Shown: positions 14,737 to 36,768 of the stretch, piece after piece
Layout: each line of letters starts with the position of its first letter
How positions within the stretch are numbered: the first letter of the stretch is position 1
Assembly (NCBI GenBank): GCA_029260055.1
Contig: JAJDDX010000229.1
Coordinates: 1 to 36,768 of the forward strand
From: Phycisphaerae bacterium
GTDB lineage: Bacteria > Planctomycetota > Phycisphaerae > UBA1845
DNA length: 36,768 nt
Direction: 5' to 3'
Made by a program: the position numbers and the translations under genes
Notes under the pieces: model-generated
What the model saw: only the letters and a program-made list of their open reading frames with translations
The model's database searches: none
What the model was told of the DNA's origin: nothing

Positions 14737-14780
14737 GGCCGGCTGGGCTTCGATAGACGTAGACTGTGGGAGAATACGCT

Positions 14781-16070
14781 ATGTGTACGCCACACGGACC
14801 GGTCCGCCCAAACGTCACCAGGATGTCGACACTCTTCAGTGTCATCATTTTGGCCCTCGCAGCGATGTCCGCCGTTCCGGCACATGGTGCGACGCTCTGG
14901 CCCGCCGACGACGCCGGCCTGCGCGACGACGCACCGGAGGACGGCGTCGCCGATTCGATGACCTCGACACTCTGGGTTTACAACAACTACAGCGCGACGA
15001 CGGTCGCCGTTATGGAATACAGCGTGTCCGCGTTTACGGGCCAGACGCTGTCCGTGGCCACCGTGCAGGGTGAACTCGCGGTGAACAACGCAAACAACGT
15101 GGGCGTGCGAACCTTCCTGGTGAAGATCTACGCCGGCAACGGAACGGTCGAGCTTAGCGACTACGCCATCGCGGCGACCGAAGTGGGTCAGTTCTCCTAT
15201 GCGCCTCCCGCCGACACCAGAGCCCCGTTTACCATCGATATGCTCGGCGCCGCCCAGGCTCTGATCTCGAGCGGAGCCACCTATATCGGCGTCCGCGTGG
15301 AGCCGGCTGGGTCCGACTCGCCCAACGTGTTCCCCACGCCTCCCACGATCACCCTTCAGACGGGTGCCCCGCCCGGCCCGGAGGCGATCGCCTGGACCGT
15401 CGAGCCCGCGCACGTGGCGCAGACTGGTTCGGGCGTCGACGGCACCGAGTTCACGCCATCGGAACCCATTACCGTCACAGCCCTGGGCTACTACGACGAC
15501 ACGTACCAGTCCGACCCGGGCCTCAGCGTGCCGCACGATGTCGGAATCTACAACTTGGATACCTACGCATTGGTGGTCTCGGCCACGGTGCCGGCCGGGG
15601 CGCAGGCTCCGCTCGTGGACGAGTTCAGGTTCGTCGAGATCACGCCGACCGATCTTGTCGCCGGGCAGACATACGTGCTTGCCGCCGTCTCGAACGGCGA
15701 CTGGGCCCGAAATGCCGGACCGGATTACCGCATCGTCGATCCCCGGATCACGGTTGGGGCATGGCTCGTCAGCGGGTCTTCGTCTCTGACTTTCCCGACT
15801 ATCCCCCTTGCGACCGAGAGTATCTTCCTCGGACCGACCTTCCTGTTCACGGGCGAGTCGGCCGACGACAGCGACGGCGACGGGGTAGCGGATGGCGTCG
15901 ACGAATGCCCGGACACGATCCCGGGTGTGACTGTGGACGCGGTCGGCTGCCCGCCGCCGATCATCGGAGATCTCGACCGCGACGGCGACGTAGACCTGGA
16001 CGACTACGCCATGTTGGTGCAATGCATGAGCGGCACAGATACGCCCGCCGACCCCAGTTGCGGCTCCTAG
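14781..16070 (+). CDS. Secreted protein with DUF4082-like domain, TSP3 repeat and dockerin-like tail
   Basis: This 429-residue exported protein has a leader whose hydrophobic core is FSVIILALAAMSA, with cleavage likely after PAHGA. Residues about 35-180 form a beta-rich domain of unknown type (one stretch reads VNNANNVGVRTFLVKIYAG). Residues about 190-330 resemble DUF4082: WTVEPAHVAQTGSGV, VTALGYYDD, HDVGIYN and the pattern 'FRFVEITPTDLVAGQTYVL'. A thrombospondin type 3-like Ca repeat (DSDGDGVADGVDECPD) and one dockerin-like EF-hand (GDLDRDGDVDLDDYAML) close the protein. The ATG at 14781 has GGGAG eight bases upstream. It is probably a cell-surface or matrix protein; no enzyme activity is suggested. 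Confidence 0.8.
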   Translation: MCTPHGPVRPNVTRMSTLFSVIILALAAMSAVPAHGATLWPADDAGLRDDAPEDGVADSMTSTLWVYNNYSATTVAVMEYSVSAFTGQTLSVATVQGELAVNNANNVGVRTFLVKIYAGNGTVELSDYAIAATEVGQFSYAPPADTRAPFTIDMLGAAQALISSGATYIGVRVEPAGSDSPNVFPTPPTITLQTGAPPGPEAIAWTVEPAHVAQTGSGVDGTEFTPSEPITVTALGYYDDTYQSDPGLSVPHDVGIYNLDTYALVVSATVPAGAQAPLVDEFRFVEITPTDLVAGQTYVLAAVSNGDWARNAGPDYRIVDPRITVGAWLVSGSSSLTFPTIPLATESIFLGPTFLFTGESADDSDGDGVADGVDECPDTIPGVTVDAVGCPPPIIGDLDRDGDVDLDDYAMLVQCMSGTDTPADPSCGS

Positions 16071-19205: not shown

Positions 19206-19296
19206 GGCTCGCTCACTCGCGGGAACCGACGGCGCCTACGGATGAGGGCCGCCCGCTCCTCTTACCGGTATTAATAACCGGAGCCGCTCACCGCAC

Positions 19297-19917: not shown

Positions 19918-20303
19918 AAGTCGAATCCGGCAACGCACTTACGAATCGCAAACGCCCGGCCACGGCACCGCTCGATCACGGGTCCCGGCCAGCCGTGTCG
20001 AGACCGGCGCGGCGCGTGGAGTATCGAGTACCAAACTTAACATATTTTTAGCGCGTGAGTAAAGCTTCCCTTTCCGGTTGATGCTGATAGTCGGGGGTGG
20101 TGTTTGCGGGCCGGACTCCAGATCGTGAAGCGGCGGATCAGCCCGCCCGCTTGGCGGGAGGTGGTCTTCCGGCACCGTCAAGCGAAGCGCGCGTGGCGCT
20201 ATCCCGGCAAAGCAGCGTCAGTCACGGTCATCGTTCCTTTGGCCATCTGCTCGGTGAACGAAGCCCCGAGCGGCTCGCCACAAATCCAGGAGGAGACGAA
20301 TCG
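19918..20303. other. Divergent promoter region between the sigma factor and the tandem secreted genes
   Basis: There is no gene here. An A+T-rich patch near 20035-20055 (minus strand AAAAATATGTTAAG) may hold the sigma factor promoter, but no pair of boxes with good spacing could be fixed. A small hairpin CCCGCC/GGCGGG lies at 20142-20158. A strong AGGAGGAG precedes the plus-strand start. Confidence 0.4.
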
Positions 20304-21446
20304 ATGCATCTCAACCGTCACGTATTATCCGGTGTGCTGCTTCTATGCGGCGTGGCCCTTCCCTCATCAACGCAGGCCGAGCAGGCGATCTTCTTTGTCG
20401 CGTGGATGCAAGGCAATCCCGGCTCGCCAACCGCCTATCGTTCCGATGTTTGTTACGTGATCGACACAGTGACTGCCCATTGCCTGCTCACCATCGACGG
20501 GAATACGTTCTCAGGCGAGATGAGCGTCGACAGCGACTTCTATTTCCAACCGAACGGATTCAGGAGGTACTGGTCACGCGGCTATCCTAGCAGCAACGGC
20601 GCATGGGTGAGCAAGAACCCTACCGAAGCCGCCCCTGTCCCCTATCGCAGGCCCGGTCTAGGCCACGGCGCTACGGAGTGGAACGACGTCGCCTACACGC
20701 TAGCAAGCAGTGAACCGGTTTTCGCTACAGACGTTGGCATCTACAGAGACTTGACCAGAATCCGAGAGGGCGTGTACACCAGCGTGGCCGTAGATAACAC
20801 ACGTGGCGTCATCTACGCGATTGCCCCGGGCAACATCGTCAAACTCGACCTGGACGGTAACCTGATCGAGCTTCTACATCTCGACGTGGTGGAGCCTCCG
20901 CTGGGCCTGGCCATCGATGAGGACGCCAACAAGATCTGGTGGCATACCGAGGATAAGATCAAGCGAGCCAACACTTCCGGCTACAACTCCGGCCTTGTCA
21001 CCATCCACGGGGAGCTCGGCGGCACGATCGCGGACATTGAAGTCTTCCCGGAGAGCAACTCGGTCTATTCTCTCTGGGACGCCGGCTCAGAATGGGCCGT
21101 TTATAGGATGGGCCGAGGTGGCAATAACCTCGAGCTTCGCATAATCGATTACAAACCCGCCGGTTACCGCCCGGTTGGCTTCGATGTGCATGAGCCGGGT
21201 TGCCGCCTCGGCGACGGAAGCCAGCGCTTGTTCGGCGACGTGACGGTGGGATGGAACAGCGTGGACTTTCGTGACATCCAGAAGGTGGCCCAGTGCTTCC
21301 AAGGGCTCGGAAGCTCGAGCGACAGGGAACGATGCGACCTCAGTCCGTGCCTCCTTCGATCGGGCTCGTGCCTGGGTGACGACGATATCAGTTACTTCGA
21401 CATCAACAACGTCATCGACGCCTTTCAAGGCCTCGGCTGTCGGTAG
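20304..21446 (+). CDS. Secreted propeller-like protein with paired dockerin-like motifs, copy 1
   Basis: This 380-residue exported protein has a signal peptide cleaved after Ala25 (ALPSSTQA-EQ). The middle region (about 130-280) holds beta-propeller-like repeats similar to LDL-receptor class B or NHL units: GVIYAIAPGNIVKLDLDGN, then GLAIDEDANKIWWHTEDKIKRANTSG, and IADIEVFPESNSVYSL. The C-terminal 80 residues contain two EF-hand-like dockerin motifs (GDVTVGWNSVDFRDIQKVAQCF and GDDDISYFDINNVIDAF) flanked by Cys pairs. The ATG has AGGAGGAG upstream. The gene is followed 95 bases later by a paralogue with a near-identical leader and tail. Function is unknown; a structural or binding role at the surface is inferred. 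Confidence 0.8.
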   Translation: MHLNRHVLSGVLLLCGVALPSSTQAEQAIFFVAWMQGNPGSPTAYRSDVCYVIDTVTAHCLLTIDGNTFSGEMSVDSDFYFQPNGFRRYWSRGYPSSNGAWVSKNPTEAAPVPYRRPGLGHGATEWNDVAYTLASSEPVFATDVGIYRDLTRIREGVYTSVAVDNTRGVIYAIAPGNIVKLDLDGNLIELLHLDVVEPPLGLAIDEDANKIWWHTEDKIKRANTSGYNSGLVTIHGELGGTIADIEVFPESNSVYSLWDAGSEWAVYRMGRGGNNLELRIIDYKPAGYRPVGFDVHEPGCRLGDGSQRLFGDVTVGWNSVDFRDIQKVAQCFQGLGSSSDRERCDLSPCLLRSGSCLGDDDISYFDINNVIDAFQGLGCR

Positions 21447-21541
21447 CGCGTGGAATGTGCGTAGCGCTTGGTCGCGCGGGGACCTCCACGCGGCAGTTCA
21501 TCACGCGACAAATCACTTTAGCACCCAGAGGAGACGAATCC

Positions 21542-22687
21542 ATGCATCTCGACCGTCACGTATTGTCCGGTGTGCTGCTTCTGTGCGGCGTGGCCCTTCC
21601 CACATCAACGCAGGCGGAACAGCCGATCTTCTTTCTGGCATGGATGCAAGGCAATCCCGGCTCGCCAACCGGCTATCGTACCGACGTGTGTTATTCGGAT
21701 CCGCTGGACAGTACACTCGGGGCTCATTGCAGAGCCATCCGGACGGGTGACACATTCTCCGGGGAAGCGAGCGTCGACAGCGACGTGTACTATATTCACC
21801 ATGATTTGACCGATTGGGTTTGGGGGCGCTATATGTCCACCCATTTTTGGAGGGAAGAGCCACTGCACACTTTCGACGGCGGTCTTGTAGCGCACCCAGG
21901 TCTATACGACGGCGTAACGGAGGTGAACGACGTCGCTTATTCTGATTCAGTGGCGTGGGCGTTCTTCGCTACTGATGTCGGCATCTACAAGCATGAAACC
22001 AGAATCCGTGAGGGCGTGTATATCAGCGTGGACGTAGATAGCACGCGCAACCTCCTTTACGCGATTGCCCCGGGCAACATCCTCAAACTGGACTTCGACG
22101 GTAACCTGATCGAGCTTCTGCATCTCGATACGGTAGAGCCTCCACTGGGCCTGGCGATCGATGAGGACGCCAACAAGATCTCGTGGCACACGGACACGAA
22201 GGTCAAGCGGGCTAACACTTCGGGCTACAACTCCGGCCTTGTCACCGTCCGCGAGTTCTCCACCGCGATCACGGACATCGAAGTCTTCGCGCAGAGCAAC
22301 TCGATCTATGTGCTCCAGGGCAACGAAGTGGCATGGCTCGTTTCTCGGATGGGCCGAGGTGGCAATAACTACGAAGAACTCATATTCGACTGGAGTCCAG
22401 GCGGTCGCCACCCAGTTGGCTTCGACGTGTACGAGCCCGGTTGCCGCCTCGGCGATGGAAGCCAACGCTTGTTCGGCGACGTGACGGCGGCATGGAACGA
22501 CGTGAACTTCAATGACATCCAGAAGGTGGCCCAGTGCTTCCAAGGGCTCGGAAGCTCGAGCGACAGGGAGCGGTGCGATCTTAGCCCCTGCATCCGTCAA
22601 ACAAGCTCGTGCCTGGGGGACGACGATGTCAGTTTCAAGGATATCGACAGGGTCGTCGACGCTTTTCAAGGGCTCGGCTGCCTGTAG
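21542..22687 (+). CDS. Secreted propeller-like protein with paired dockerin-like motifs, copy 2
   Basis: This 381-residue paralogue of the preceding gene has the same signal peptide (MHLDRHVLSGVLLLCGVAL), the same propeller-like stretch (LLYAIAPGNILKLDFDGN, GLAIDEDANKISWHTD) and an almost identical dockerin-like tail (QKVAQCFQGLGSSSDRERCDLSPC). Even the leader up to the start matches (GAGGAGACGAATC). The two proteins differ most at residues about 47-120, where neither has a motif I know. They are best seen as a recent tandem duplication with a variable segment. It ends 97 bases before the convergent sufT gene. Confidence 0.8.
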   Translation: MHLDRHVLSGVLLLCGVALPTSTQAEQPIFFLAWMQGNPGSPTGYRTDVCYSDPLDSTLGAHCRAIRTGDTFSGEASVDSDVYYIHHDLTDWVWGRYMSTHFWREEPLHTFDGGLVAHPGLYDGVTEVNDVAYSDSVAWAFFATDVGIYKHETRIREGVYISVDVDSTRNLLYAIAPGNILKLDFDGNLIELLHLDTVEPPLGLAIDEDANKISWHTDTKVKRANTSGYNSGLVTVREFSTAITDIEVFAQSNSIYVLQGNEVAWLVSRMGRGGNNYEELIFDWSPGGRHPVGFDVYEPGCRLGDGSQRLFGDVTAAWNDVNFNDIQKVAQCFQGLGSSSDRERCDLSPCIRQTSSCLGDDDVSFKDIDRVVDAFQGLGCL

Positions 22688-23664: not shown

Positions 23665-24929
23665 CAGCCGAATACCTCAACGACGCGACAGAGGCTGGCC
23701 ACAAGCACGTCGATCTCTTCCTTCGTGTTGTAGAACGCCAGGGACGCACGGGTCGTCGCGGGCACGCCGAACCGCTCCATCACCGGCTGGGTGCAGTGAT
23801 GCCCGGTCCGAATCGCGATGCCCTCGCGATCCAGGATGGTACCCACGTCGTGCGCGTGTACCGCGTCCAACACGAAGGACAGAACCGCCGCCTTGTGTGC
23901 AGCCGTGCCGACCAATCGGACACCACCGGCTGCTTGCAGCGCTTCGGTCGCATAAGTGAGGAGTTCATACTCGTACGCGGCGATCCGATCAAGGCCGACC
24001 GATTCGAGGTATTCCACCGCCGCCCCGAGCCCCACGACACCGGCGATATTCGGCGTGCCGGCCTCGAATTTGTGAGGAATGTCGTTGTAGGTCGTGCTCT
24101 CGAACGTGACCGAGCGGATCATCTCGCCGCCACCCTCATAAGGCGGCATGGCTTCGAGCAACTCCGCTTTGCCGTACAAGGCGCCGATGCCCGTCGGGGC
24201 GAAAACCTTGTGCCCGGAAAACGCGTAGAAGTCGCAATCGAGGTCCCGCACATCGACTTTCATGTGCGGCACAGCCTGGGCCCCGTCAATCAGCACCTTC
24301 GCGCCGCACTGGTGGGCCGACTCGATCATCTCGCGTACCGGGTTGATGGTACCGAGGCTGTTGGACACATGGGTGACCGCCACCAGCTTGGTCTTCGGCC
24401 CGAGCAGCTTGGCATATTCGTCCATCAGGACCTCGCCGCTGTCGTTGATCGGCACGACACGGAGGACCGCTCCGGTCTGCTGGCAAAGGAGCTGCCACGG
24501 CACGATGTTCGAGTGATGCTCCATCGTCGTGATGACGATCTCATCGCCTTCGCCGATGGTGGAGCGGCCAAACGTGTGCGCCACGAGGTTGATCGCTTCG
24601 GTCGCTCCGCGGACGAAGACGATTTCCTTCGCTTCGGCAGCACCGAGGAAGTCGCGTACGAGCAGGCGGGCGCGTTCGTAGGCTTCGGTCGCGCGCACGC
24701 TCAAAGCGTGGACGCCACGATGAATGTTGGCGTTGTCGGTGGTGTAGTAGCGCGTGACCGCATCGATGACGGACGCGGGTTTCTGCGACGTAGCCGCGTT
24801 GTCCAGGTAGACCAGCGGCTTGCCGTGTACCTTCTGCTGGAGGGCGGGGAAATCCTCTCGAATCCGCGCAACCGGGAACGGCGGCTCTTGCGTCGCACTA
24901 TCAGGCCGGTTTACGTTCACGATGCTCAT
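23664..24929 (-). CDS. sufS: Cysteine desulfurase SufS
   Basis: This 421-residue PLP-dependent group II cysteine desulfurase takes sulfur from cysteine and passes it as persulfide to SufU. The PLP lysine is K241 in SGHKVFAPTGIGALYG, the catalytic Cys is C379 in RTGHHCTQPVM, and other cofactor residues are in DNAATSQKP, TTMEHHSNIVPWQ and DGAQAVPHM. Length is normal. The gene overlaps sufD upstream (ATGA) and sufU downstream (TGATG). The assignment to SufS and not to IscS rests on the operon and the short active-site loop. Confidence 0.96.
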   Translation of the reverse strand: MSIVNVNRPDSATQEPPFPVARIREDFPALQQKVHGKPLVYLDNAATSQKPASVIDAVTRYYTTDNANIHRGVHALSVRATEAYERARLLVRDFLGAAEAKEIVFVRGATEAINLVAHTFGRSTIGEGDEIVITTMEHHSNIVPWQLLCQQTGAVLRVVPINDSGEVLMDEYAKLLGPKTKLVAVTHVSNSLGTINPVREMIESAHQCGAKVLIDGAQAVPHMKVDVRDLDCDFYAFSGHKVFAPTGIGALYGKAELLEAMPPYEGGGEMIRSVTFESTTYNDIPHKFEAGTPNIAGVVGLGAAVEYLESVGLDRIAAYEYELLTYATEALQAAGGVRLVGTAAHKAAVLSFVLDAVHAHDVGTILDREGIAIRTGHHCTQPVMERFGVPATTRASLAFYNTKEEIDVLVASLCRVVEVFG

Positions 24930-26266
24930 GCGCTCTCTCGAAACGAAGCCCCCTGCGGCAGCCTTGCCAGCAGGAGGGCATCCAGTTGTTCACGAAGGGC
25001 GTCGACCTTGATCTTCGACACGCTCTCTTTAGCGAAAGCGTAGATCAGAAGGCTGCGCGCCGCCTCGGCGCTGATTCCGCGGGACTGCAAGTAGAACAAG
25101 GCATCCTCGTCGACCTGTCCGATCGTCGCGCCGTGCGTACACTTCACGTCGTCGGCGAAGATCTCGAGCTGCGGCTTGCTGTCGACCTGCGCCTCTTCCG
25201 ATAGAAGCAGGCTCATGTTGGTCTGCTTCGCGTCGGTCTTCTGGGCGTCCTCTCGGACCATGATTCGACCGCAAAACACACCGTGCGACCGCCCTTCCAG
25301 GATGCCCTTGTAGAATTCGCGGCTGTCGCAGTGCGGTACGGCATGGTCGACGCGCAGATGGTTATCCACGTGCTGTTCGCCGTCGATGGTGTAAAGCCCG
25401 TTGAGCGTACACTCCGCGCCTTCGCCTGCCAGCAGCGCCCCGACGTTGTTGCGCACGAGCTTCCCACCCATCGATAGCGTGTGGGAAGTGGCGCAACTAT
25501 CGCGCCCCAGCCGGACGTGTCGCGTGCCGATGTGGAACGCCTCGTCCGCTTCGCGCTGTACGTTGTAGTGATCGACGATGGCACCGTCGCCGACGACGAT
25601 CTCCGTGACCGCGTTGGCGAAGTACTTCGCACCGTCGAGTCCGACGTAGTTCTCGATGACCGTGACCTCGCTGCACTCGCCGACCACGATGAGATTGCGC
25701 GGGTGAGACACAAACGGTGATGCGGTCGAGGTCGACAGATACAGAACGTGAATCGGTCGTTCGATCTTCTTGCCCGACTCCACCCGAATGACCGCCCCGT
25801 CCTCGACGATCGCCGTATTCAGAGCGGCGAACGCCTGAGTCACGCTGTCGGTGTGCTTGCCCAGATGCTCTTTGACGACCGCGTCACCCGATTCGACGGC
25901 GGCAGCCAGGCTCCCCGCGTGCAAGCCGGCCGACAAGCTGTCGATAATCGACAGGTCGCGAGCGAAGTGCCCGTTGATGAAGACCAGCAGCCCCCCCACC
26001 GCATCCGCCATCGCAAGCCGCGCGATCTGAGCGGCAGTCACACCGTCTATTGCACTGCGGTCGGCACGTTCGAACGCGATCTTCGCGATGGGCGCTACGT
26101 TCGTGTATCGCCAGTCCTCGTCCTTCGTCGTCGGAAAGCCCAGTTCGGTGAACCGCGCCATGGCGGTTTTGCGCGCGGGCAAGAACCAGTCCGACGCGGC
26201 GCCGCCCTGCTCGAACCGGTCGAAGTGGGCGAGGTAAGTGTTCTTGTCTTCCTTAACGTGTGCCAT
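24926..26266 (-). CDS. sufD: Fe-S cluster assembly protein SufD
   Basis: This 446-residue beta-helix protein forms the SufBC2D scaffold on which Fe-S clusters are built. The N-terminus has the DEDWRYTN motif (in FPTTKDEDWRYTNVAP). The C-terminus has CTHGATIGQVDEDALFYLQSRG, containing the conserved His, and LLIYAFAKE. GAGG precedes the ATG by five bases. It starts 18 bases after sufC, and its stop overlaps the sufS start as ATGA. Confidence 0.95.
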   Translation of the reverse strand: MAHVKEDKNTYLAHFDRFEQGGAASDWFLPARKTAMARFTELGFPTTKDEDWRYTNVAPIAKIAFERADRSAIDGVTAAQIARLAMADAVGGLLVFINGHFARDLSIIDSLSAGLHAGSLAAAVESGDAVVKEHLGKHTDSVTQAFAALNTAIVEDGAVIRVESGKKIERPIHVLYLSTSTASPFVSHPRNLIVVGECSEVTVIENYVGLDGAKYFANAVTEIVVGDGAIVDHYNVQREADEAFHIGTRHVRLGRDSCATSHTLSMGGKLVRNNVGALLAGEGAECTLNGLYTIDGEQHVDNHLRVDHAVPHCDSREFYKGILEGRSHGVFCGRIMVREDAQKTDAKQTNMSLLLSEEAQVDSKPQLEIFADDVKCTHGATIGQVDEDALFYLQSRGISAEAARSLLIYAFAKESVSKIKVDALREQLDALLLARLPQGASFRESA

Positions 26267-26284
26267 ATCAGCCTCGTCCTAGCC

Positions 26285-27055
26285 TTACGATGTGACCGCC
26301 TCAGTGCCGGCTTTCGCGTCGTCGACACCCTTGTACCCGTTCTGTTCGAGTTCCAAGGCCAGTTCCTTGCCGCCGGACTTGACAATGCGGCCATCCATCA
26401 GCACGTGGACGAAATCGGGCACGATGTAGTTGAGTAACCGCTGGTAATGCGTCACCACGACCATGGCTCGGTCCGGACCGCGCAGCTTGTTCACGCCGTC
26501 GGCGACGATCTTAAGTGCGTCGATGTCGAGCCCGGAGTCGGTCTCGTCGAGGATGGCCAGCGTCGGCTCCAGCATGGCCATCTGGAAGATTTCGTTGCGT
26601 TTCTTCTCGCCGCCGGAGAAGCCTTCGTTGATGGCACGATTCAACAGCTTCGAGTCGATCTCGACGTACTCGGCCTTCTTCTTGACCACGTCGAGGAAGT
26701 CCATCGCGTCGAGTTCTTCCTCGCCGCGGTGCTTCCGGATCGAGTTGATCGCGGCTCGGAGGAAGTAGTTCGTCGTGACGCCGGGGATCTCGACCGGGTA
26801 CTGGAACGCCAGAAAGATGCCCTCGCAGGCACGCTTGTCGGGCGTAAGTTCCGTAAGGTCCTGCCCCTTGTAGATGATCTGGCCCTGCGTCACTTCGTAG
26901 GCCTCATGACCCGCGAGCACTTGCGCCAGCGTACTCTTGCCCGACCCGTTGGGCCCCATGATCGAGTGGACCTCACCGGCGTTGACCGTCAGGTCGATGC
27001 CTTTGAGGATTTCGTGTCCCTCGACGTTGGCGTGTAGATTCCGAATCTCCAGCAT
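26285..27055 (-). CDS. sufC: Fe-S cluster assembly ATPase SufC
   Basis: This 256-residue ABC-type ATPase drives conformational change in the SufBC2D complex. Walker A is GPNGSGKST (34-42), the signature is FSGGEKKRNEI (near 150), and Walker B with its neighbours is LAILDETDSGLD, where the family-specific DETDSGLD is intact, followed by the His of the switch (VVVTHYQRLL). It is separated from sufB by 176 bases holding a palindromic element, and from sufD by 17. Confidence 0.96.
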   Translation of the reverse strand: MLEIRNLHANVEGHEILKGIDLTVNAGEVHSIMGPNGSGKSTLAQVLAGHEAYEVTQGQIIYKGQDLTELTPDKRACEGIFLAFQYPVEIPGVTTNYFLRAAINSIRKHRGEEELDAMDFLDVVKKKAEYVEIDSKLLNRAINEGFSGGEKKRNEIFQMAMLEPTLAILDETDSGLDIDALKIVADGVNKLRGPDRAMVVVTHYQRLLNYIVPDFVHVLMDGRIVKSGGKELALELEQNGYKGVDDAKAGTEAVTS

Positions 27056-27231
27056 CGCTATCTCTCTTTCGCGTCGACCGGCGGGAACCGGGGCATAGCA
27101 CGTCTTGGCACATCAAATGACGGGTGGCCTGGGCAAGCGGCAGCTTGCCCGTGAGCAGCTGCCGAGGACACGGGCAAACAAGTTTGCCCATGCCACCCCG
27201 GTGGACCCTTCAATTGAGATGCGACGAAGCA
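27056..27231. other. sufB-sufC gap
   Basis: This 176-base spacer is unusually long inside an otherwise tight operon. It holds the palindromic element listed at 27122-27198 and the ribosome site of sufC (GAGAG). No gene is seen. Confidence 0.7.
27122..27198. repeat. 77-bp structured palindromic element between sufB and sufC
   Basis: The ends are inverted repeats (GGGTGGCCTGGGCAAG against the complement of the right end, one mismatch in the first 15). Inside are several perfect stems: 27131-27138 with 27143-27150, 27172-27179 with 27182-27189, and two alternatives that compete with the first, 27138-27145 with 27157-27164 and 27145-27153 with 27169-27177. It looks like a REP- or MITE-like dispersed repeat that inserted in the operon and could fold in the mRNA. 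Confidence 0.7.
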
Positions 27232-28680
27232 CTAGCCAACGCTGCCTTCCAAACTGACCTCTAGTAGTTTCTGAGCTTCAACCGCGAATTCCATCGGGAG
27301 TTCGCGGAACACTTCCTTGCAGAAGCCGTTGACGATCATGGAGACCGCGTCTTCCATCGAGATGCCGCGTTGCATCATGTAGAAGAGTTGGTCCTCGCCG
27401 ATCTTGGACGTAGTGGCTTCGTGCTCCATCTGAGCCGTCTTGTTCTTGACCTCGATGTACGGGAAGGTGTGCGCGCCGCACTGATCCCCGATCAACATCG
27501 AATCGCATTGCGTAAAGTTGCGGGCGTCCGTCGCGCCGCTGTTGATGCGCACGCCGCCGCGGTAAGTGTTCTGTCCGTGGCCGGCTGAGATACCTTTCGA
27601 GATGATCGTGCTGCGCGTGTTCTTGCCGATGTGGATCATCTTCGTGCCGGTGTCAGCCTGCTGATAGTTGTTCGCCATCGCGACCGAATAGAACTCGCCC
27701 ACCGAGTTGTCGCCCAGTAGGATGCAGCCGGGGTACTTCCAGGTAATCGACGAACCCGTCTCGACCTGCGTCCACGAGATGTGCGAGTTACGCCCCTGGC
27801 ACTTGCCCCGCTTGGTGACGAAGTTGTAGATGCCGCCCTTGCCCTCTTTGTCGCCCGGGTACCAGTTCTGTACGGTCGAATACTTGATGCTCGCGTCGTC
27901 AAGCGCGACGAGTTCCACCACGGCTGCGTGAAGCTGGTTCTCATCGCGCATCGGAGCGGTGCAGCCTTCCAGGTAGCTCACGTCGGCCCCCTCGTCTGCG
28001 ATGATCAGCGTCCGCTCGAACTGTCCCGTGGAGGCTGCGTTGATCCGGAAGTAGGTCGACAGCTCCATCGGACACTTGACGCCCTTGGGGATGTAGACGA
28101 ACGAACCGTCGGTGAAGACCGCGGAGTTCAAGGCGCTGAAGAAATTGTCACCGGTCGGGACCACGGAGCCGAGGTACTTCCTGACCAGCTCCGGATGCTC
28201 CTTTACGGCTTCAGAGAACGGGCAGAAGATGATGTCGAGTTCGGCGAGCTTCTCGCGGAACGTCGTCGCGACGGACACGCTGTCGAAGACCGCATCGACC
28301 GCCACGCCCGCGAGCTTGGCACGCTCTTCCAGCGGAATGCCGAGCTTCTCGTAGGTGCGTAGCAGTTCCGGATCGACCTCGTCGAGGCTCTTGGGAGCGT
28401 CCTTGTTCTGCTTGGGCGCGGAGTAGTAGACGATCTGCTGATAGTCGATCGCGGGGTACTTGACGTTCGCCCAGGTCGGCTCGGTCATCGTGAGCCAGTG
28501 CCGATAGGCCTTGAGCCGCCATTCGAGCATGAACTCCGGCTCGCCCTTCTTCGCCGAGATGACGCGGATCACGTCCTCGTTGAGGCCGGCCGGCACGGCG
28601 TCCGCCTCGATGTCCGTGACGAACCCGTACTTGTATTCCGACTCTGCCCACTGATCGATCGTGGAACCCGATTCAGACAT
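27232..28680 (-). CDS. sufB: Fe-S cluster assembly protein SufB
   Basis: This 482-residue protein is the cluster-binding beta-helix subunit of SufBC2D. Family features include [10 protein letters not shown] at the start, [26 protein letters not shown], the long core ending in [23 protein letters not shown], with the Cys that receives sulfur, and [22 protein letters not shown], with the conserved His and Glu. Length is typical. It follows the A-type carrier gene by 52 bases. Confidence 0.96.
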
Positions 28681-28732
28681 CCATCTTCACTCCGGGCGGC
28701 GATGCCGCCGTGCAAGGTTCGGCGAGCCCGCG

Positions 28733-29077
28733 TTACACGGAGAAGCTGCTTCCGCAGCCGCAGCTCGTGTTGGCGTTCGGGTTGTTGAAGACAAAGCCGC
28801 GTCCCATCATTTCGTCCCGGTAGTCGATGGTCGTGCCGTCGAGGTAGAGGAAACTCTTGGAATCGCAAATCACCGGGACACCGTGCTGATCCCAGTTTTC
28901 GTCGGTTTCCGTCATCGTGTCGACGAGATCGAGCGAGTAGCTAAACCCGCTGCAACCACCGCCCTTGACGCCGACGCGCAGATAGAACTTCTTGGGCTCC
29001 GCGCCTTCGGCTCCGTTCTGTTGGTCGATGATCGTCTTGACCTCTTTCGCGGCCATTTCGCTCAGTATGATCGCCAT
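28733..29077 (-). CDS. A-type Fe-S carrier protein (SufA/IscA/ErpA family)
   Basis: This 114-residue HesB/IscA-family carrier collects clusters from SufBC2D and hands them to apo-proteins. The three cluster-binding cysteines are present: Cys42 in GGGCSGFSY and Cys106/Cys108 in SCGCGSSF. The start is taken as the second ATG (29077), since GGAG lies nine bases upstream of it but only three bases upstream of the earlier ATG at 29083. It is the second gene of the operon. SufA, IscA and ErpA cannot be told apart by sequence alone, so no symbol is given. Confidence 0.93.
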   Translation of the reverse strand: MAIILSEMAAKEVKTIIDQQNGAEGAEPKKFYLRVGVKGGGCSGFSYSLDLVDTMTETDENWDQHGVPVICDSKSFLYLDGTTIDYRDEMMGRGFVFNNPNANTSCGCGSSFSV

Positions 29078-29133
29078 TAGCATCTACTCCGCTTCGTTAG
29101 AGTCGACGTGGTGCCCGACGAGGCGAGATCGCG

Positions 29134-30874: not shown

Positions 30875-32437
30875 ATGTACCGCCACGCCCCCTACTGCAC
30901 AATCGCCGGTATCCTCACAACGCTCTACCTCTTCCCGCTGTTGGTTGACGCCGCGCCGCAAGTCGAACCCGGCTACCAGGTTCTTCGCGTCACGGTGAAG
31001 GACGCCGCGCAGCTTCAGAAACTGATCAAACTCGACGAGCGGCGCCGCGACCTCGAAATCTGGGCGGATCAACTCGCCCCCGGGCAGCTTGACGTGCGAG
31101 CGTCACTGGCGGCGAAGCAGGCACTGTCGGAGGCAGGTCTTCGCCACACGGTCGAGATCCAGGACCTACGGGCCCATTACAGCACCCTCTTTCCCGGCGG
31201 TGGCGGCGACTTCTTCGATAACTACCGCACCTACGATGAACACATCGCGCTCATGCAGAGCTTGGTCGCGACCTACCCGAACCTCGCGCAGATGTTCAGC
31301 GTGGGACAATCCGTTCTCGGGCGCGAGATGTGGGCCCTGCGCATCACGGGCCCCGGAGCCGACAAGACGGGTGTGTTGTATCACGGAGGCCAGCACGGCA
31401 ACGAGATCATGGGGCCGGCCGTCGTCGCTTACACCGCGCGGCACGTACTGCAGAACTACGGGTCCGATGCCGAGGTCACGGCACTTGTCGATGGCCTGGA
31501 GTGGTACCTGCTTCCGATCATGAATCCGGACGGCTATGTGGCCGGAAGCCGCGGCAACGCCGCCGGCGCGGACCTCAATCGCGACTGGGGCGGGCCCGGC
31601 AGCCAGCCGAACCCGTTTTCCCAGCCCGAGACGGTAGCCGTCTCGGCGTTGTTGATCGCGAACCCGAGCGTTCGCGTCTACATGGATTTCCACACGCACG
31701 GCTACATGATCATGTGGCCCTGGGGACACACACCCGAGTACTGTGAAGATCAGCCGACGTTCGACTTGCTCGGCACGCTGATGGCGGACCGAATCATCGA
31801 AGTCCGCGGCACCGACTATTGGCGGCGCGGTCCGGTCAATACGACGATCTACCCCGTCGCGGGCGGCTCCAACGACTACGTCTATGGCGATCTCGGGCGA
31901 TGGGCGTTCACGATCGAGATCGGCTACGCGCACTACATGTCGCCTATCGAGATTCTCCCAAGTGCCCAGGAGATGGCAGCCGCCCTTCGAGGGTTGTCCG
32001 GGTGGGCCGCGGACTGCAACGGCAACGGCATCCTCGACAAGCAAGAGATCGACAGCGGGCAGGCCGTGGACTGCAACGAGAACCTGACGCCCGACGTCTG
32101 CGAGGGCATCCCCGATTTTGACGGCGACGGCGCGATCGACGTCTGCGACCCGGACACCGACAACGACGGTGTCCTCAACGAGGACGACATTTGCCCGTTT
32201 TCACTTCCCGGGGCTCCGATCCATACGGATGGCGGGCCCGTCGGCGACAGCAACGGGAACTGCACCGTGGATCACATAGACTACGCCCGATTCCGGCCCT
32301 GCCTGTTGGGTAGCGGCCCGGGCACGCCCCCACTGCAGGGGCAATGTGAGCAGTACTTCGACTTCGACGGCGACGGTGACGTCGACCTGGCGGACGTGGC
32401 GATGTTCTTCGACGCGTTCGCCCCGGGCGCCGGCTAG
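30875..32437 (+). CDS. Secreted zinc carboxypeptidase (M14), copy 1, with Ca-repeat tail
   Basis: This 520-residue exported metallopeptidase should remove C-terminal residues from peptides. A signal peptide precedes AAPQV (about residue 26). Residues 30-105 look like a propeptide. The M14 catalytic set is intact: zinc ligands His174 and Glu177 in GGQHGNEIMG and His273 in DFHTHGYM, substrate-binding Asn235/Arg236 in DLNRDWGG, and the general base Glu348 in FTIEIGYAH. After about 375 comes a tail of Asp/Asn/Cys repeats (DCNGNGILDKQE, DFDGDGAIDVCDPD, DNDGVLNEDD) and a dockerin-like pair ending FDFDGDGDVDLADVAMFF. The ATG is preceded by GAGAG at seven bases. Confidence 0.92.
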   Translation: MYRHAPYCTIAGILTTLYLFPLLVDAAPQVEPGYQVLRVTVKDAAQLQKLIKLDERRRDLEIWADQLAPGQLDVRASLAAKQALSEAGLRHTVEIQDLRAHYSTLFPGGGGDFFDNYRTYDEHIALMQSLVATYPNLAQMFSVGQSVLGREMWALRITGPGADKTGVLYHGGQHGNEIMGPAVVAYTARHVLQNYGSDAEVTALVDGLEWYLLPIMNPDGYVAGSRGNAAGADLNRDWGGPGSQPNPFSQPETVAVSALLIANPSVRVYMDFHTHGYMIMWPWGHTPEYCEDQPTFDLLGTLMADRIIEVRGTDYWRRGPVNTTIYPVAGGSNDYVYGDLGRWAFTIEIGYAHYMSPIEILPSAQEMAAALRGLSGWAADCNGNGILDKQEIDSGQAVDCNENLTPDVCEGIPDFDGDGAIDVCDPDTDNDGVLNEDDICPFSLPGAPIHTDGGPVGDSNGNCTVDHIDYARFRPCLLGSGPGTPPLQGQCEQYFDFDGDGDVDLADVAMFFDAFAPGAG

Positions 32438-32709
32438 CGGGGACCGCTGTGCGGCCGCAGAGGCCTGGTTGTTCGCCCGGCCGCCGCGAGACCTTGCACT
32501 TTGGCGACGCGCTACGGCGTCATACGATCCCTTTGGACGATTACCCTTGCGGCGTCCGCCTCGCTCTACCTAGAATGGTCGGCGCAGCGGTGGAGTCGCA
32601 GGGCAATGCGATTACCGACGTACCGCCGCGACTACGGCCGTCCCTCCCGACGCACGGCTGATAGGACAACGGCTCTCTGTCGGTCGAGCCCCAACCTGTG
32701 AGCAGACGC
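32438..32709. other. Spacer between the two carboxypeptidase genes
   Basis: These 272 bases hold no gene. They contain a candidate promoter at 32547-32576 and no hairpin terminator that I can see. Confidence 0.5.
32547..32576 (+). promoter_or_regulatory. Candidate promoter for carboxypeptidase copy 2
   Basis: TTGCGG (32547-32552) and TAGAAT (32571-32576) are 18 bases apart. The -10 context CTAGAATGGTCGG closely matches that of the promoter at 14708-14736 (CTAGAATGGCCGG). Confidence 0.4.
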
Positions 32710-34272
32710 ATGCCCATCAACACATACTATCGAGCGGCAACTACCCTAGTCTTCATCTTGTTCGTCTCGCCTCACGCGAGCCATTCGGCTCCGCAGGTCA
32801 ACCCGGGCCTCCAGATGCTACGCGTCACGCTTGACGACGCATCGCAACTCGACACACTCGTTGCCCTCGAACGGCAGCGCCGCGATCTCCAGATATGGAC
32901 CGACCGCCTCGCCCTCGGGCCGATTGACGTACGAGCCTCACTCGCGGCTGTGCAGGCGATCGAGAAAGCCGGGTTGTCATTCGAAGTGACAATACCCGAC
33001 TTGCAGGCGTACTACGGCCGACTCTTCCCAGGCGGCGGTGGCGACTTCTTCGATTCCTATCGTACTTTTGAAGAACACGTGGCGTTCATGCAGAATCTGG
33101 AGGCCACCTATCCCTCGCTGGTTCAGATGATCAGCGTGGGGAAATCCGTACTCAACCGTGATTTGTGGGCCCTTCGTATCACGGGGCCGGGCAACGACAA
33201 GGTCGGTGTGTTGCATTACGGCGCCACACACGGCAACGAAGTCATGGGAGCGGCCGTTGTGGCCTATACTGCGCAGCACCTACTCGTCAATTACGGAACG
33301 GACGCCGAGATTACCGCCTTGGTCAACGACGTCGAGTGGTTCCTGCTTCCGATCATGAACCCCGACGGTTATGTGTCGGGCAGCCGCTACAACGCCGCCG
33401 GTGCCGACCTCAATCGCGACTGGGGCGGGCCCTGGACGGGGCCCGGCGCGTTCTCAGAGCCCGAGACCGTCGCGATGGCCGACTTCTTCATCTCCCACCC
33501 GAACGTACGCGTGATCCTGGACTTCCATACTTTTGGCAGAATGATCCTATGGCCGTGGGGGCACACTCCGGTTCTCAGTGACCACAATGCCTTGTATGAC
33601 GCCCTTGGCGATGACATGGCTTTCGCGATTTCTCAGGTCCGCGGCGTTGACTACTGGCAGCGAGGGCCGATCAACACGACGATTTACCCGACCATGGGCG
33701 ACGCAGCCGACTACGCGTACGGCGTACTCGATAGGTGGGCGTTCGGTATCGAGATCGGCACCTCGCACTACATGCCGACATCTGAAATCGTCCCGAGCGG
33801 CCAGGAAATGGCCGCCGCCCTCATGGCCGTCTCGGACTGGGCTGCTGACTGCAACGGCAACGGAGCCCTCGACTGGCAAGAGCTCAGTTCAGGCCAGGCG
33901 GAGGACTGCAACGGCAACCTGACACCTGACGAATGCGAGATGATCCCGGACTTCGATGGCGATGGGATTATGGATATATGCGATCCGGACACCGATAACG
34001 ACGGCGTGCTCAACGAGGACGACATCTGCCCGTTTTCCGCTCCCGGGGCCCCGATCCATCCCACCGGCAGCCCCATCAGCGATAGCAACGGGAACTGTTT
34101 CGTGGATCACGTGGATTTCGCCCGATTCCGGCTCTGCCTGTTGGGTAGCGGCCCCGGGACGCCTCCGTTGCAGGAGCAATGTGAGCAGTACTTCGACGGT
34201 GACGGCGACGGCGATGTCGATCTCGCGGACCTTGCGATGTTCTTCGGCGCGTTCGATCCGGGCGGCGGCTAG
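32710..34272 (+). CDS. Secreted zinc carboxypeptidase (M14), copy 2, with Ca-repeat tail
   Basis: This 520-residue paralogue of the preceding gene is collinear with it and exactly the same length. The same catalytic residues are visible: GATHGNEVMG, DLNRDWGG, LDFHTFGRM and FGIEIGTSHY, so it should be active. The second His of DFHTHG in copy 1 is Phe here; it is not a ligand. The tail repeats (DCNGNGALDWQELSSG, DFDGDGIMDICDPD, DNDGVLNEDDICPFS, GDGDGDVDLADLAMFF) match closely. The start is placed at ATG 32710 because it gives equal length to copy 1. A GTG at 32698 adding MSRR is possible, and neither has a strong ribosome site. Confidence 0.9.
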   Translation: MPINTYYRAATTLVFILFVSPHASHSAPQVNPGLQMLRVTLDDASQLDTLVALERQRRDLQIWTDRLALGPIDVRASLAAVQAIEKAGLSFEVTIPDLQAYYGRLFPGGGGDFFDSYRTFEEHVAFMQNLEATYPSLVQMISVGKSVLNRDLWALRITGPGNDKVGVLHYGATHGNEVMGAAVVAYTAQHLLVNYGTDAEITALVNDVEWFLLPIMNPDGYVSGSRYNAAGADLNRDWGGPWTGPGAFSEPETVAMADFFISHPNVRVILDFHTFGRMILWPWGHTPVLSDHNALYDALGDDMAFAISQVRGVDYWQRGPINTTIYPTMGDAADYAYGVLDRWAFGIEIGTSHYMPTSEIVPSGQEMAAALMAVSDWAADCNGNGALDWQELSSGQAEDCNGNLTPDECEMIPDFDGDGIMDICDPDTDNDGVLNEDDICPFSAPGAPIHPTGSPISDSNGNCFVDHVDFARFRLCLLGSGPGTPPLQEQCEQYFDGDGDGDVDLADLAMFFGAFDPGGG

Positions 34273-34320
34273 CAGGAGTCGTTCCACATCCGGGAGGCGG
34301 GCAGTGTGGTCCCGAGCCCA

Positions 34321-36303
34321 TCACCCGCCATCGGGCGGGCCGAATGCCGCAAAGAACGCGGACAGGTCTTCCATATCCACGTCCCCGTCCTCGTCAAAGT
34401 CGAACGGGTGCGCACAATAGACGACGTCCGCGGGCACGTCCGGTCCGCCGACGGTCAAGCAGGTACGGAAGCGGCTGTAATCCACCAGATCGATGCCGCA
34501 GTTGGCGTTTGTATCGGCGCGCGGTGAACCGTCGGGGGCGACGGGCACGCCGGTCGGCGTCAGGTCGCAGACATCCGCCTCGTTCAGCACGCCGTCGTTA
34601 TCGATGTCCGAGTCACAGCCGTCATTCGTGCCGTCGCCGTCGAAGTCGGGATCGCACTCATCGGGGACGAAGTTCCCGTCACAGTCTTCGCTGGTTCCGT
34701 CGGCGATGTCGCACGGGTCGGCCACGTTCGTATCGTTGCAGTCGGGTTCGCACTCGTCCGGAAAACTGTTCCCGTTGCAGTCGTCGCTGGCGCCACTCGC
34801 CACGTCCTCAGCGTCCGGAATACCGTTTTCGTTGCAGTCGATTGTGCCGATCCTGAGGAAGTAGACGTCTTGTTCCCCGTTGAACGTCGCCGCGTAGGCC
34901 ACGTTGACGCCCGCGTTGTCCGACACCATGTCATAGTAATCACCGAGCTTGCTCTGATTCGGCCAGCCCAAGTGGCTATCGAACATCGGGCTGACGGGCG
35001 TGCTCGCCGACCAAGTCGAACCGCCGTCAAACGAATTCGTATAGAAGAGCTCCGAGAAATTGTCGGCAATGCCGTTCCGCGTATCGTTCCAGATCACGTC
35101 GATTCGACCGTTGGGGGCGACCGACATCGTGCCGAACCATTGCCAGGCGTTGGTCGTCGTGAGGTCGTCGTTGACGCGGATCGGGTCGCTCCAGGTCTGA
35201 CCGCCGTCAGGACTCCGCACGAACATCACGTCCAGTGGATCGCTGCCGGGGGGATCGACCGACGACAGAACGTAGACATTCCCATGCGTCGCGCCCTCTG
35301 AGTGATCCGTCGCGACCCAGACCTGCCCGAGCAGCCCGCCGGGATTCGGTCCGGGTACGGTGTAGCGCAGAGAACCGCCCAAGGAGATGTCCACGGCGAG
35401 ATCGAACGCCGGCGCAAGCGATGCATCCTGCACCGTCAACGAGCGTGCCAGGGCAAAGACGCTCGAGCTGCTGTTTCTCCTACCCACGAGGTAGTAGGCG
35501 CCGTCGGGGCCCACCGACGATGTACCCCAGATCGGAAAGCCCGGTGTCGGAATGGGCGTGCTGTAGGTGAGCCCGCCGTCGACCGATCGGATAAAAACGT
35601 CTGAACCGCAGCACCCCGCGTAATCCCAAGCGGCGTAGATATGGCCGTGTCCCATACCACCCGTACGGTCGATGGACATCCAGGCCTTGTCGCCGCCGAA
35701 CGCAGGGATGGGCTCGGTCCACGTGACACCGCCGTCGCCGGACTTGAACATGTCACACGCGTATCCGCCGCCGGGGATCGTTAGGCTGTAGTAGTAGATA
35801 TTCCCGTCCGCATCCGCTTTCACGACCGGATCGCTACGGAACACCTGCGGGTCCAGCACGCCGGGAGCCGTCCACGCGAGTCCGGCGTCGGTCGTATAGC
35901 CCCATCCTGCCTGGCGAAAGTTCGATGCGGTGGTATCGAACTGGCGCCACCCGATGACCATGCGGTTGGGACTGGTCGGGTCGACGGCGATGGAAGGCTC
36001 ATTGGCGGCGTCACCGGGGATGTTGTTGCCGAACTCATCGACGTTGACCTGCACGCTGGTGAATCCGCCTCGCGAAACGACGGCTCGGCCCATCCTCACG
36101 CCGGGCGGCGGAACGAGCGAACGCGGCATCCAGGGGTCGCGAAGCTCCTCCTTGTGGCCCAGCGTCTTGCTGAGCGTGCGCATGGTCGTCTCAGCGGTGG
36201 TAATGCGCGCACGGACGGACCTTGCATCGAGCTGCGCGGGCCGCGCTGGGCTGCATGCCACACCGACTACCAACGCTCCGGCTATCCACGATGGGAATCT
36301 CAT
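34321..36303 (-). CDS. Secreted BNR-repeat (sialidase-like propeller) protein with Ca-repeat tail
   Basis: This 660-residue exported protein has a signal sequence (GALVVGVACS, perhaps lipid-modified at Cys17). Residues about 100-470 carry Asp-box/BNR repeats: TTDAGLAWTAP, SGDGGVTWTEP, SVDGGLTYSTP, SPDGGQTWSDP and SFDGGSTWSAS, five in all, as in sialidase-like propellers. The Arg triad and other residues of true sialidases are not evident, so an enzyme activity is unproven. The tail has repeats DCNENGIPDAED, DCNGNSFPDECE, DCDGNFVPDECD, a DIDNDGVLNEADVC unit and a dockerin-like FDFDEDGDVDMEDLSAFF. GGAAAG lies seven bases before the ATG, and the gene starts 15 bases after the upstream gene. Confidence 0.88.
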   Translation of the reverse strand: MRFPSWIAGALVVGVACSPARPAQLDARSVRARITTAETTMRTLSKTLGHKEELRDPWMPRSLVPPPGVRMGRAVVSRGGFTSVQVNVDEFGNNIPGDAANEPSIAVDPTSPNRMVIGWRQFDTTASNFRQAGWGYTTDAGLAWTAPGVLDPQVFRSDPVVKADADGNIYYYSLTIPGGGYACDMFKSGDGGVTWTEPIPAFGGDKAWMSIDRTGGMGHGHIYAAWDYAGCCGSDVFIRSVDGGLTYSTPIPTPGFPIWGTSSVGPDGAYYLVGRRNSSSSVFALARSLTVQDASLAPAFDLAVDISLGGSLRYTVPGPNPGGLLGQVWVATDHSEGATHGNVYVLSSVDPPGSDPLDVMFVRSPDGGQTWSDPIRVNDDLTTTNAWQWFGTMSVAPNGRIDVIWNDTRNGIADNFSELFYTNSFDGGSTWSASTPVSPMFDSHLGWPNQSKLGDYYDMVSDNAGVNVAYAATFNGEQDVYFLRIGTIDCNENGIPDAEDVASGASDDCNGNSFPDECEPDCNDTNVADPCDIADGTSEDCDGNFVPDECDPDFDGDGTNDGCDSDIDNDGVLNEADVCDLTPTGVPVAPDGSPRADTNANCGIDLVDYSRFRTCLTVGGPDVPADVVYCAHPFDFDEDGDVDMEDLSAFFAAFGPPDGG

Positions 36304-36318
36304 GCTCTGTCTTTCCAG

Positions 36319-36768
36319 CTATCCGCCAAACCCGCCCTGAAAGAACGACACATCTTGAAGATCGACATCGCCATCATCATCCGCGTCGAACGGATTCAGA
36401 CAGGTCGCGGCGTCGACGGGGGTGCCCGGTCCGCCGCCGGCGAGGCACGGTCGCAGCCGCTGAAAATCAACCAGGTCGATGGCGCAGTTACCGTTCGTGT
36501 CGGCGCGCGGCGATCCATCGGGTTGAACCGGAGCGCCCATCGGCGTGAAGTCGCAGAGGTCCGCGGCGTTCGGCACGCCGTCGTGATCGATGTCCGGGTC
36601 GCAGGCGTCAATGGTGCCGTCACCGTCGAAGTCAGGGTCACACTCATCAGGGACGGTGTTCCCGTCGCAGTCCTCGCTGGTCCCGGTGGCGATGTCGCAC
36701 GTGTCGGCGACGCCGGTGTGATTGCAGTCTCGCTCGCACTCATCCGGAAAAGTATTGGCGTTGCAGTC
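36319..36768 (-). CDS. C-terminal tail of a secreted Ca-repeat protein, N-terminus beyond window
   Basis: The frame is open from the window edge to a TAG at 36319, giving 149 residues of C-terminus. It is entirely tail: DCNANTFPDECE, DCNHTGVADTCD, DCDGNTVPDECDPD, DFDGDGTIDACDPD, DHDGVPNAADLC, then a dockerin-like pair ending FDADDDGDVDLQDVSFFQ. These are the same modules as in the neighbouring BNR protein and the two carboxypeptidases. It ends 15 bases before the BNR gene, so the two are probably one operon. Nothing can be said of the catalytic part. Confidence 0.85.
   Translation of the reverse strand, partial: DCNANTFPDECERDCNHTGVADTCDIATGTSEDCDGNTVPDECDPDFDGDGTIDACDPDIDHDGVPNAADLCDFTPMGAPVQPDGSPRADTNGNCAIDLVDFQRLRPCLAGGGPGTPVDAATCLNPFDADDDGDVDLQDVSFFQGGFGG

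What the first reader, a model, noticed from the sequence alone, without database searches (positions are those of the whole stretch)
30875..36768. One C-terminal module shared by secreted proteins of unrelated function
Two M14 peptidases, a BNR protein and an unknown protein end in the same order of units: Cys/Asn repeats (DCNGN..PDECE), a DPDxDNDGVLNExDxC unit, an 'NxNCxxDxxDYxRFRxCL' segment and a dockerin-like pair with GDVD and a terminal AFF. Simpler forms end the proteins at 14781, 20304 and 21542. Sharing of tails by different catalytic heads suggests a sorting, anchoring or docking signal. No cohesin or sortase-like partner is in the window.
Basis: partly seen in the sequence, partly recalled or inferred. 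Interest (0 to 1): 0.6.

Follow-up and report, generated by a model that had tools for sequence, protein, structure and literature searches.

The report
Disulfide-clamped dockerin tail on secreted proteins
Several secreted proteins of an uncultured planctomycete end in the same plug-like calcium-binding domain, a dockerin, and likely matching sockets, cohesins, sit elsewhere in the same genome, so the tail most likely plugs many different proteins into shared surface scaffolds.

Summary
The shared tail is real. It belongs to a subclass with a cysteine on each side of the inter-repeat linker. Its predicted fold resembles solved dockerins. The genome gives 140 matches to the subclass profile; in the part I fetched, 78 of 108 full domains end within 10 residues of the C-terminus, on predicted extracellular proteins with varied heads. 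The partner missing from the window exists elsewhere: about 16 cohesin places, including two proteins with three cohesin-like domains and an IPTL-CTERM-like end, and cohesin+HYR "adaptors". A cohesin-dockerin "planctosome" with M14 peptidases was proposed for freshwater planctomycetes in 2019, so the kind is known; the scale, cysteine pair and exosortase-type scaffold ends look like a variant. Within the window the full tail sits on two visible head families only (M14 twice, BNR once); the fourth protein is cut by the contig end. Binding is inferred; some relatives have one or two cohesins for over a hundred dockerins.

The parts
30875..32437 (+). M14 zinc carboxypeptidase head with full tail (M14a)
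   Evidence: PF00246 E 1.1e-57, Dockerin_1 25.8 bits over cut-off 22.9
32012..32104 (+). DCNxN...PDxCE repeats of M14a tail
   Evidence: alignment of tails
32114..32194 (+). thrombospondin type 3 unit of M14a tail
   Evidence: PF02412 21.1 bits, below cut-off 25; over cut-off in M14b
32246..32434 (+). C-type dockerin of M14a (both half-repeats)
   Evidence: fold
32698..34272 (+). M14 zinc carboxypeptidase paralogue with full tail (M14b)
   Evidence: PF00246 E 5.2e-56; TSP_3 27.3 bits over cut-off 25; 67.5% identical to M14a
34081..34269 (+). C-type dockerin of M14b
34321..36303 (-). BNR-repeat-like protein with full tail
   Evidence: BNR matches below Pfam cut-off; tail alignment; paralogue C297 over BNR cut-off
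34567..34647 (-). thrombospondin type 3 unit of BNR tail
   Evidence: PF02412 17.8 bits, below cut-off
34327..34515 (-). C-type dockerin of BNR protein
36319..36768 (-). C-terminal tail of a protein cut by the contig end; head not visible
   Evidence: contig end
36325..36501 (-). C-type dockerin of the truncated protein
14766..16070 (+). protein ending in a TSP3-like unit plus half a dockerin
   Evidence: profile E 9.6e-10 covering positions 1-32 of 58; stop follows
15966..16061 (+). half dockerin with both clamp cysteines, second half absent

Best explanation
The tail is a cohesin-docking plug. DCNxN repeats and a thrombospondin type 3 unit form an optional cysteine-rich, probably calcium-binding spacer; the last ~63 residues are one type I dockerin whose linker is probably clamped by a disulfide. 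After Sec export the enzyme or binding protein is held outside the cell by its dockerin binding a cohesin. In this genome cohesins sit on two three-cohesin proteins ending in an IPTL-CTERM-like signal (probably handed to an exosortase for surface retention) and on large cohesin+HYR adaptors that end in another, weakly dockerin-like module. Shown: dockerin identity, C-terminal placement, head diversity, presence of cohesins and exosortase-like genes. Inferred: that these dockerins bind these cohesins, the disulfide, export and anchoring routes, calcium dependence.
For: Dockerin_1 over cut-off in M14a; 39 PF00404 places at E<=1e-3 in the genome (150 of 233 candidates scored; 2 of 14 control genomes ring). 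Predicted fold of the last 65 aa (pLDDT 78.5): Foldseek's first five rows are dockerins, though at E 0.67 or more with EF-hand proteins below; of the 58 chains realigned, the 16 entries listed are dockerins or dockerin-bearing scaffold chains, Z 2.1-6.4. Profile A5: 140 matches at E<=1e-3 (150 of 344 candidates scored; its 22 training rows are included). Among 133 proteins examined (129 fetched places plus four window proteins) 108 full domains, 78 ending within 10 residues of the C-terminus; both cysteines in 101 of 108 (the profile was built from rows that have both, so this is partly selection). Heads, 69 of 79 terminal proteins scanned: beta-helix 18, BNR 3, FGE-sulfatase 2, one each of M14, M4, S8, M10, M43, M12B-type, RCC1 and others. 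A strict signal-peptide rule passes M14a, M14b, BNR and 51 of 74 complete terminal proteins, against 13 of 60 control ORFs. Cohesins: 16 PF00963 places at E<=10, six over cut-off singly; 13 with own profile A4, six of them training rows. A4's seven PDB matches at E<=0.1 (best 0.0037) are all cellulosomal cohesin or scaffoldin chains. Two proteins with three A4 domains each; their ends score 21.0 and 19.8 bits on a local IPTL model, no shuffle of 1000 each as high. The same M14 tail in five of six named loci, from four genomes.
Against: No binding was tested and no complex modelled. Stoichiometry is odd: G298 has 141 C-dockerin matches but one A4 and one PF00963 match at E<=0.01 (a second, weaker one at L281). 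In 294 phylum genomes, 10 of 22 with the C-dockerin have no PF00963 match at 1e-3; the association (12 of 22 versus 30 of 272) rests largely on one family: without it and the own genome it is 3 of 13 versus 26 of 268, p 0.14. In the three-cohesin proteins no single domain passes PF00963 alone; the C230 protein reaches 41 bits only in sum, and the C468 one rests on A4, trained on C230. NCBIfam does not call IPTL-CTERM in either at E<=1, and the WG glycine is missing. No relative's ORF had more than one A4 match. The genome also has terminal dockerins without the cysteine pair (e.g. C87, C334, C94).
Confidence: 0.62

Rival explanations
1. The terminal dockerin is an end-cap or calcium-dependent module that binds something other than a cohesin (surface polysaccharide, S-layer, another dockerin, or its own protein), so the copy number reflects a general surface-adhesion domain.
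For: Dockerins far outnumber cohesins: 141 to one or two in G298, 64 to 2 in G297; 10 of 22 sampled C-dockerin genomes have no cohesin match. The cysteine pair marks it off from the solved dockerin best aligned.
Against: All six genomes with 50 or more copies carry cohesins; 294-genome co-occurrence is positive overall, though weak outside one family; best fold matches are to cohesin-bound dockerins.
Confidence: 0.2
2. The tail is itself a secretion or sorting signal recognised and perhaps removed by a dedicated exporter or protease.
For: C-terminal placement: 78 of 108 full domains end within 10 residues of the C-terminus.
Against: A separate sorting signal, IPTL-CTERM, exists with exosortase-like genes; 24 of 108 full domains are more than 25 residues from the end, some just before an IPTL-CTERM end, one group at the N-terminus.
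Confidence: 0.1
3. The tail is only a passive calcium-stabilised spacer left by domain shuffling, without a dedicated partner.
For: TSP3 and DCNxN units look like optional spacers; by motif only 6 of 83 terminal dockerin proteins carry both.
Against: Calcium-ligand positions and both half-repeats are conserved across 108 domains and in homologues from other genomes, more than a spacer needs.
Confidence: 0.08

Closest known systems
Planctosome (Andrei et al. 2019, PMC6461901; passages read)
   Same: Planctomycete, non-cellulosic cohesin-dockerin set; M14 and M12B peptidases with dockerins; TSP3 repeats; adaptor with cohesin, HYR and dockerin.
   Different: That model has an anchor protein with a lamin-tail domain and one adaptor, in Nemodlikiaceae (mean genome 2.6 Mb). 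Here there are 140 dockerin matches, two three-cohesin proteins with IPTL-CTERM-like ends, and many non-peptidase heads. Whether its dockerins share the cysteine pair was not checked.
Clostridial type I cohesin-dockerin (cellulosome)
   Same: Two EF-like half-repeats, three-helix dockerin fold, cohesins present.
   Different: No glycoside hydrolase family in the head lists shown; cysteines around the linker; scaffolds seen here have one to three cohesins.
Non-cellulosomal cohesin-dockerin sets of ANME archaea and Cloacimonadota (PMC9012536, PMC5244752, PMC8542988; passages read)
   Same: Many dockerins, cohesin proteins, extracellular heads including peptidases (Cloacimonadota).
GC-type dockerin NF041540 (NCBIfam)
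   Same: A named bacterial dockerin-like C-terminal domain.
   Different: Not among the listed NCBIfam matches of M14a, M14b, BNR, 20097 or 21455 at E<=1; one cohesin adaptor gave a weak 12-bit match, cut-off 29.

Membership tests
Type I dockerin (PF00404) | Two calcium-loop/helix half-repeats D.D.DG.VD..D | tested here: met
   M14a 25.8 bits over 22.9; M14b 23.4 as genomic stretch but 18.3 as whole protein; BNR protein not matched by PF00404 at E<=0.1 but by A5; columns of 108 domains
Type I dockerin (PF00404) | Three-helix dockerin fold | tested here: met
   Model pLDDT 78.5; listed VIA rows are dockerins or dockerin-bearing chains, best Z 6.4, rmsd 2.4-2.8, from Foldseek's own top 58; Foldseek E-values 0.67 and higher, so support is moderate
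Type I dockerin (PF00404) | Binds a cohesin, calcium-dependent | not testable with these tools
   Cohesins present in the genome; no binding assay or complex model
Thrombospondin type 3 repeat (PF02412) | Profile match over cut-off | tested here: inconclusive
   Over cut-off in M14b (27.3 vs 25); below in M14a 21.1 and BNR 17.8
Cohesin (PF00963) | Profile match over cut-off in partner proteins | tested here: met
   Six places over cut-off on their own; the C230 three-cohesin protein only in sum, 41 bits
Planctosome | Dockerin-bearing M14 and M12B peptidases | tested here: met
   M14 in window and at C177; one reprolysin-like head
Planctosome | Adaptor with cohesin, HYR and dockerin | tested here: met
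   C146 1016 aa: HYR and Cohesin over cut-off; its dockerin is only a weak C-dockerin match, iE 1e-3, not called by Pfam at E<=0.01
Planctosome | Anchor with lamin-tail domain, P-domains, TSP3 and cohesin | not tested
   Lamin-tail family not searched in this genome
Cellulosome | Dockerins on glycoside hydrolases or cellulases | tested here: inconclusive
   None in the Pfam tallies shown for 69 of 79 terminal dockerin proteins; 4 of 29 families were not shown and other carriers were not scanned
IPTL-CTERM (TIGR04174) in the window tails | IPTLSxWG plus transmembrane helix plus basic end | tested here: not met
   No window ORF of 60 aa or more with local-model E below 0.8; M14a end scores -2.3 bits; not in the NCBIfam lists of M14a, M14b, BNR
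IPTL-CTERM in the three-cohesin proteins | Motif, transmembrane helix, basic end | tested here: inconclusive
   21.0 and 19.8 bits on a local model from 11 tails, none of 1000 shuffles each as high; not called by NCBIfam in either
Exosortase XrtH (TIGR04177) | Profile match over cut-off in the genome | tested here: not met
   Best four 64.4-83.4 bits, cut-off 86; family-like genes, not called XrtH; 7 of 14 controls ring at E<=1, none over cut-off

The most novel reading that the evidence does not exclude
A two-tier surface display system: an exosortase-type signal fixes three-cohesin scaffolds to the envelope, and more than a hundred Sec-exported proteins plug into them, directly or through cohesin+HYR adaptors, by a disulfide-clamped dockerin subclass with its own cohesin specificity.
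Probability: 0.25. Interest if true: 0.6.

Novelty: new variant of a known kind. Interest (0 to 1): 0.42.

Why it matters
If the docking holds, these planctomycetes would display a very large, exchangeable set of extracellular proteins from a handful of scaffolds, with no sign so far that cellulose is the purpose. It would join two sorting logics, exosortase-type anchoring and cohesin docking, in one system, and clamped dockerins could be useful oxidation-stable plugs. It also gives a simple rule to annotate around a hundred proteins of unknown role as parts of one system.

Tried and rejected
Full-tail structure prediction (141 aa, 9 sequences) gave pLDDT 48.6 and was not used. My first signal-peptide rule called 72 of 79 terminal dockerin proteins but also 35 of 60 control ORFs, so it was dropped; the stricter rule gives 51 of 74 versus 13 of 60. 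The control ORFs are longest non-overlapping frames from the window and five loci and include non-genes. The tails at 20304 and 21542 as simpler forms of the module: rejected, no significant match. In some searches and 6 protein 4 was the wrong-strand frame over 14766-16070; the right frame was scanned (NCBIfam), not in Pfam. A4 found nothing at 1e-6 in 293 other sampled phylum genomes (at most 13 candidates scored each), so PF00963 was used for co-occurrence; the association weakens to p 0.14 once one family is removed. A cytoplasmic-sounding head family, Thr_synth_N, matched 2 of 36 members at best 5.5e-6; I did not follow it up and take it as spurious. In the paper listings and passages I saw there was no cysteine-clamped dockerin class and no planctomycete cohesin scaffold with an exosortase signal; this is the open-licence library only, and 2 of the 4 papers holding 'planctosome' were not opened. 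Peer et al. 2009 is not held; known here only from other papers' citations.
Full report
What is there. The window is a whole contig (C145) of a 7.63 Mb, 500-contig genome; an ECF sigma factor resembles a planctomycete subfamily (below its cut-off) and the nearest named M14 homologues are from Planctomycetota and Phycisphaerales MAGs. Four genes at its right end share a C-terminal tail: 30875-32437(+), 32698-34272(+), 34321-36303(-) and the 5'-truncated 36319-36768(-). M14 and non-M14 tails align at 45-55% identity, E 2.6e-34 or better, and the BNR and truncated tails at 70%. The order is DCNxN repeats, one thrombospondin type 3 unit (over the Pfam cut-off only in M14b), and a dockerin.

One dockerin, not two units. 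Pfam Dockerin_1 is over cut-off in M14a and in M14b as a genomic stretch. AlphaFold of the last 65 aa gives three helices at pLDDT 78.5. Foldseek's first five rows are dockerins at weak E-values (0.67 and up), EF-hand proteins follow; the second look at its 58 best chains lists 16 entries, all dockerins or dockerin-bearing scaffold chains, Z up to 6.4.

A cysteine-paired subclass. One cysteine follows helix one and one precedes loop two; of 108 full domains 101 have both, 5 have one, 2 have neither. The profile used to find the domains was built from rows that all have both, so this number is partly selection. The genome also has dockerins without the pair at or near protein ends (for example C87, C334, C94, found with PF00404). 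The window tails and their M14 homologues add a third cysteine in loop one (invariant in 9 of 9). The solved dockerin aligned best by sequence (8x3a) has no cysteine at the two columns. That the pair forms a disulfide is inference.

How many and where. Profile A5 gives 140 matches at E<=1e-3 in the own genome with 150 of 344 candidates scored, its 22 training rows included. For closer study I took 114 of the 138 non-window places and 15 more, 129 in all (fetched). Dropped were mostly second matches in a frame already taken, also four C105 rows, C468:43708, C146:13851 and the PF00404 places at C346 and C281 (read as cohesin loci instead). Of the 129, 79 lie within 16 residues of the C-terminus; of 108 full domains in these plus the window proteins, 78 end within 10 residues of it and 24 lie more than 25 away. 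A strict signal-peptide rule of my own passes 51 of 74 complete terminal proteins against 13 of 60 control ORFs. Pfam on 69 of the 79 heads finds mostly extracellular-type families: beta-helix in 18, BNR 3, FGE-sulfatase 2, single M14, M4, S8, M10, M43, reprolysin-like, RCC1 and Kelch matches, and FG-GAP. No glycoside hydrolase family is in the lists shown. By motif, DCNxN repeats and a TSP3 unit together are rare: 6 of 83 (four window proteins, two BNR paralogues). An M14 at C177 carries the dockerin and is not among those six. So the constant element is the dockerin and the front part is an optional spacer.

The partner exists outside the window. PF00963 gives 16 places at E<=10, six over cut-off singly. 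My profile A4 gives 13 at E<=1, six of them training rows; C281, two places at C346 and a weak one at C146:14127 are seen by PF00963 only. A4's seven PDB matches at E<=0.1 (best 0.0037) are all cellulosomal cohesin or scaffoldin chains. Two proteins, C230:50901-52959 and C468:45447-47649, have three A4 domains each and end in VPxxSxW, a hydrophobic stretch and basic residues; by Pfam C230 reaches 41 bits in sum with no domain passing alone. On a model from 11 IPTL-CTERM ends of this genome their ends score 21.0 and 19.8 bits, above all scored shuffles of 1000 each, though NCBIfam does not call them. The genome has 68 IPTL-CTERM places over cut-off, five only with neighbours (control genomes ring in 8 of 14 at E<=1, none over cut-off), and four exosortase-like genes at 64-83 bits, below the XrtH cut-off of 86. 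Cohesin+HYR proteins like the published adaptor are at C146 (1016 aa, both over cut-off) and C468 (740 aa, HYR_4C, cohesin by A4 only).

Relatives. M14a homologues in named genomes: five of six loci, from four genomes, keep the whole tail; the sixth (L194) does not. The five genomes reached through these loci hold 92, 50, 109, 64 and 141 C-dockerin matches and all have cohesins, some in clusters of neighbouring cohesin genes; no frame there had more than one A4 match. In a 294-genome phylum sample the C-dockerin is in 22 at 1e-6 (22 candidates scored per genome) and PF00963 in 42 at 1e-3 (at most 13 scored), both in 12: 12 of 22 against 30 of 272; without the own genome 11 of 21 against 30 of 272, p 1.4e-5. 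Without also the 12 listed genomes of one family it is 3 of 13 against 26 of 268, p 0.14 (unlisted members of that family stay in). That both searches used the same 294 genomes is inferred from shared handles.

Reading. Most likely the tail docks secreted proteins to cohesins, as in the planctosome proposed by Andrei et al. 2019 (passages read). Against it: no binding shown, a 141-to-one-or-two ratio in G298, and 10 of 22 sampled C-dockerin genomes without a cohesin match. A cohesin-independent adhesion or cap role is the main rival. Non-cellulosomal cohesin-dockerin sets are known in ANME archaea and Cloacimonadota (passages read). What looks new is the scale, the cysteine pair and the IPTL-like scaffold ends; whether published planctosome dockerins share the pair was not checked.

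Noticed in passing
20097-22687 (+): Two tandem paralogues (71% identical in the last 175 aa) end in a different cysteine-rich tail with repeated FxDI...AFQG motifs, similar by eye to the end of a cohesin-bearing 740 aa protein at C468; possibly a second dockerin class.
   Followed up: partly
G000 C87, C334, C94, C107, C317:5929: Another dockerin type, GDVNGDG..DPSDI..VID.LNG, without the cysteine pair and slightly away from the C-terminus.
   Followed up: no
16104-19938 (-): Ser/Thr kinase with TPR repeats next to an ECF sigma factor resembling a planctomycete subfamily.
   Followed up: no
L273, L275, L276, L292: Clusters of neighbouring cohesin and dockerin genes in two relatives and at C146 of the own genome, including cohesin proteins ending in a FDVDKDG...L.DV half-loop.
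   Followed up: partly
G000 C435, C330, C395, C400, C414: Dockerins followed closely by an IPTL-CTERM-type end, so the two C-terminal systems can sit in one protein.
   Followed up: partly
L054 (G000 C105:1095-2979): Tandem small paralogues with the dockerin at the N-terminus right after what looks like a signal peptide.
   Followed up: no
23667-29083 (-): SUF iron-sulphur cluster genes (SufB/D-type, ABC ATPase, class V aminotransferase, Fe-S_biosyn), ordinary.
   Followed up: no
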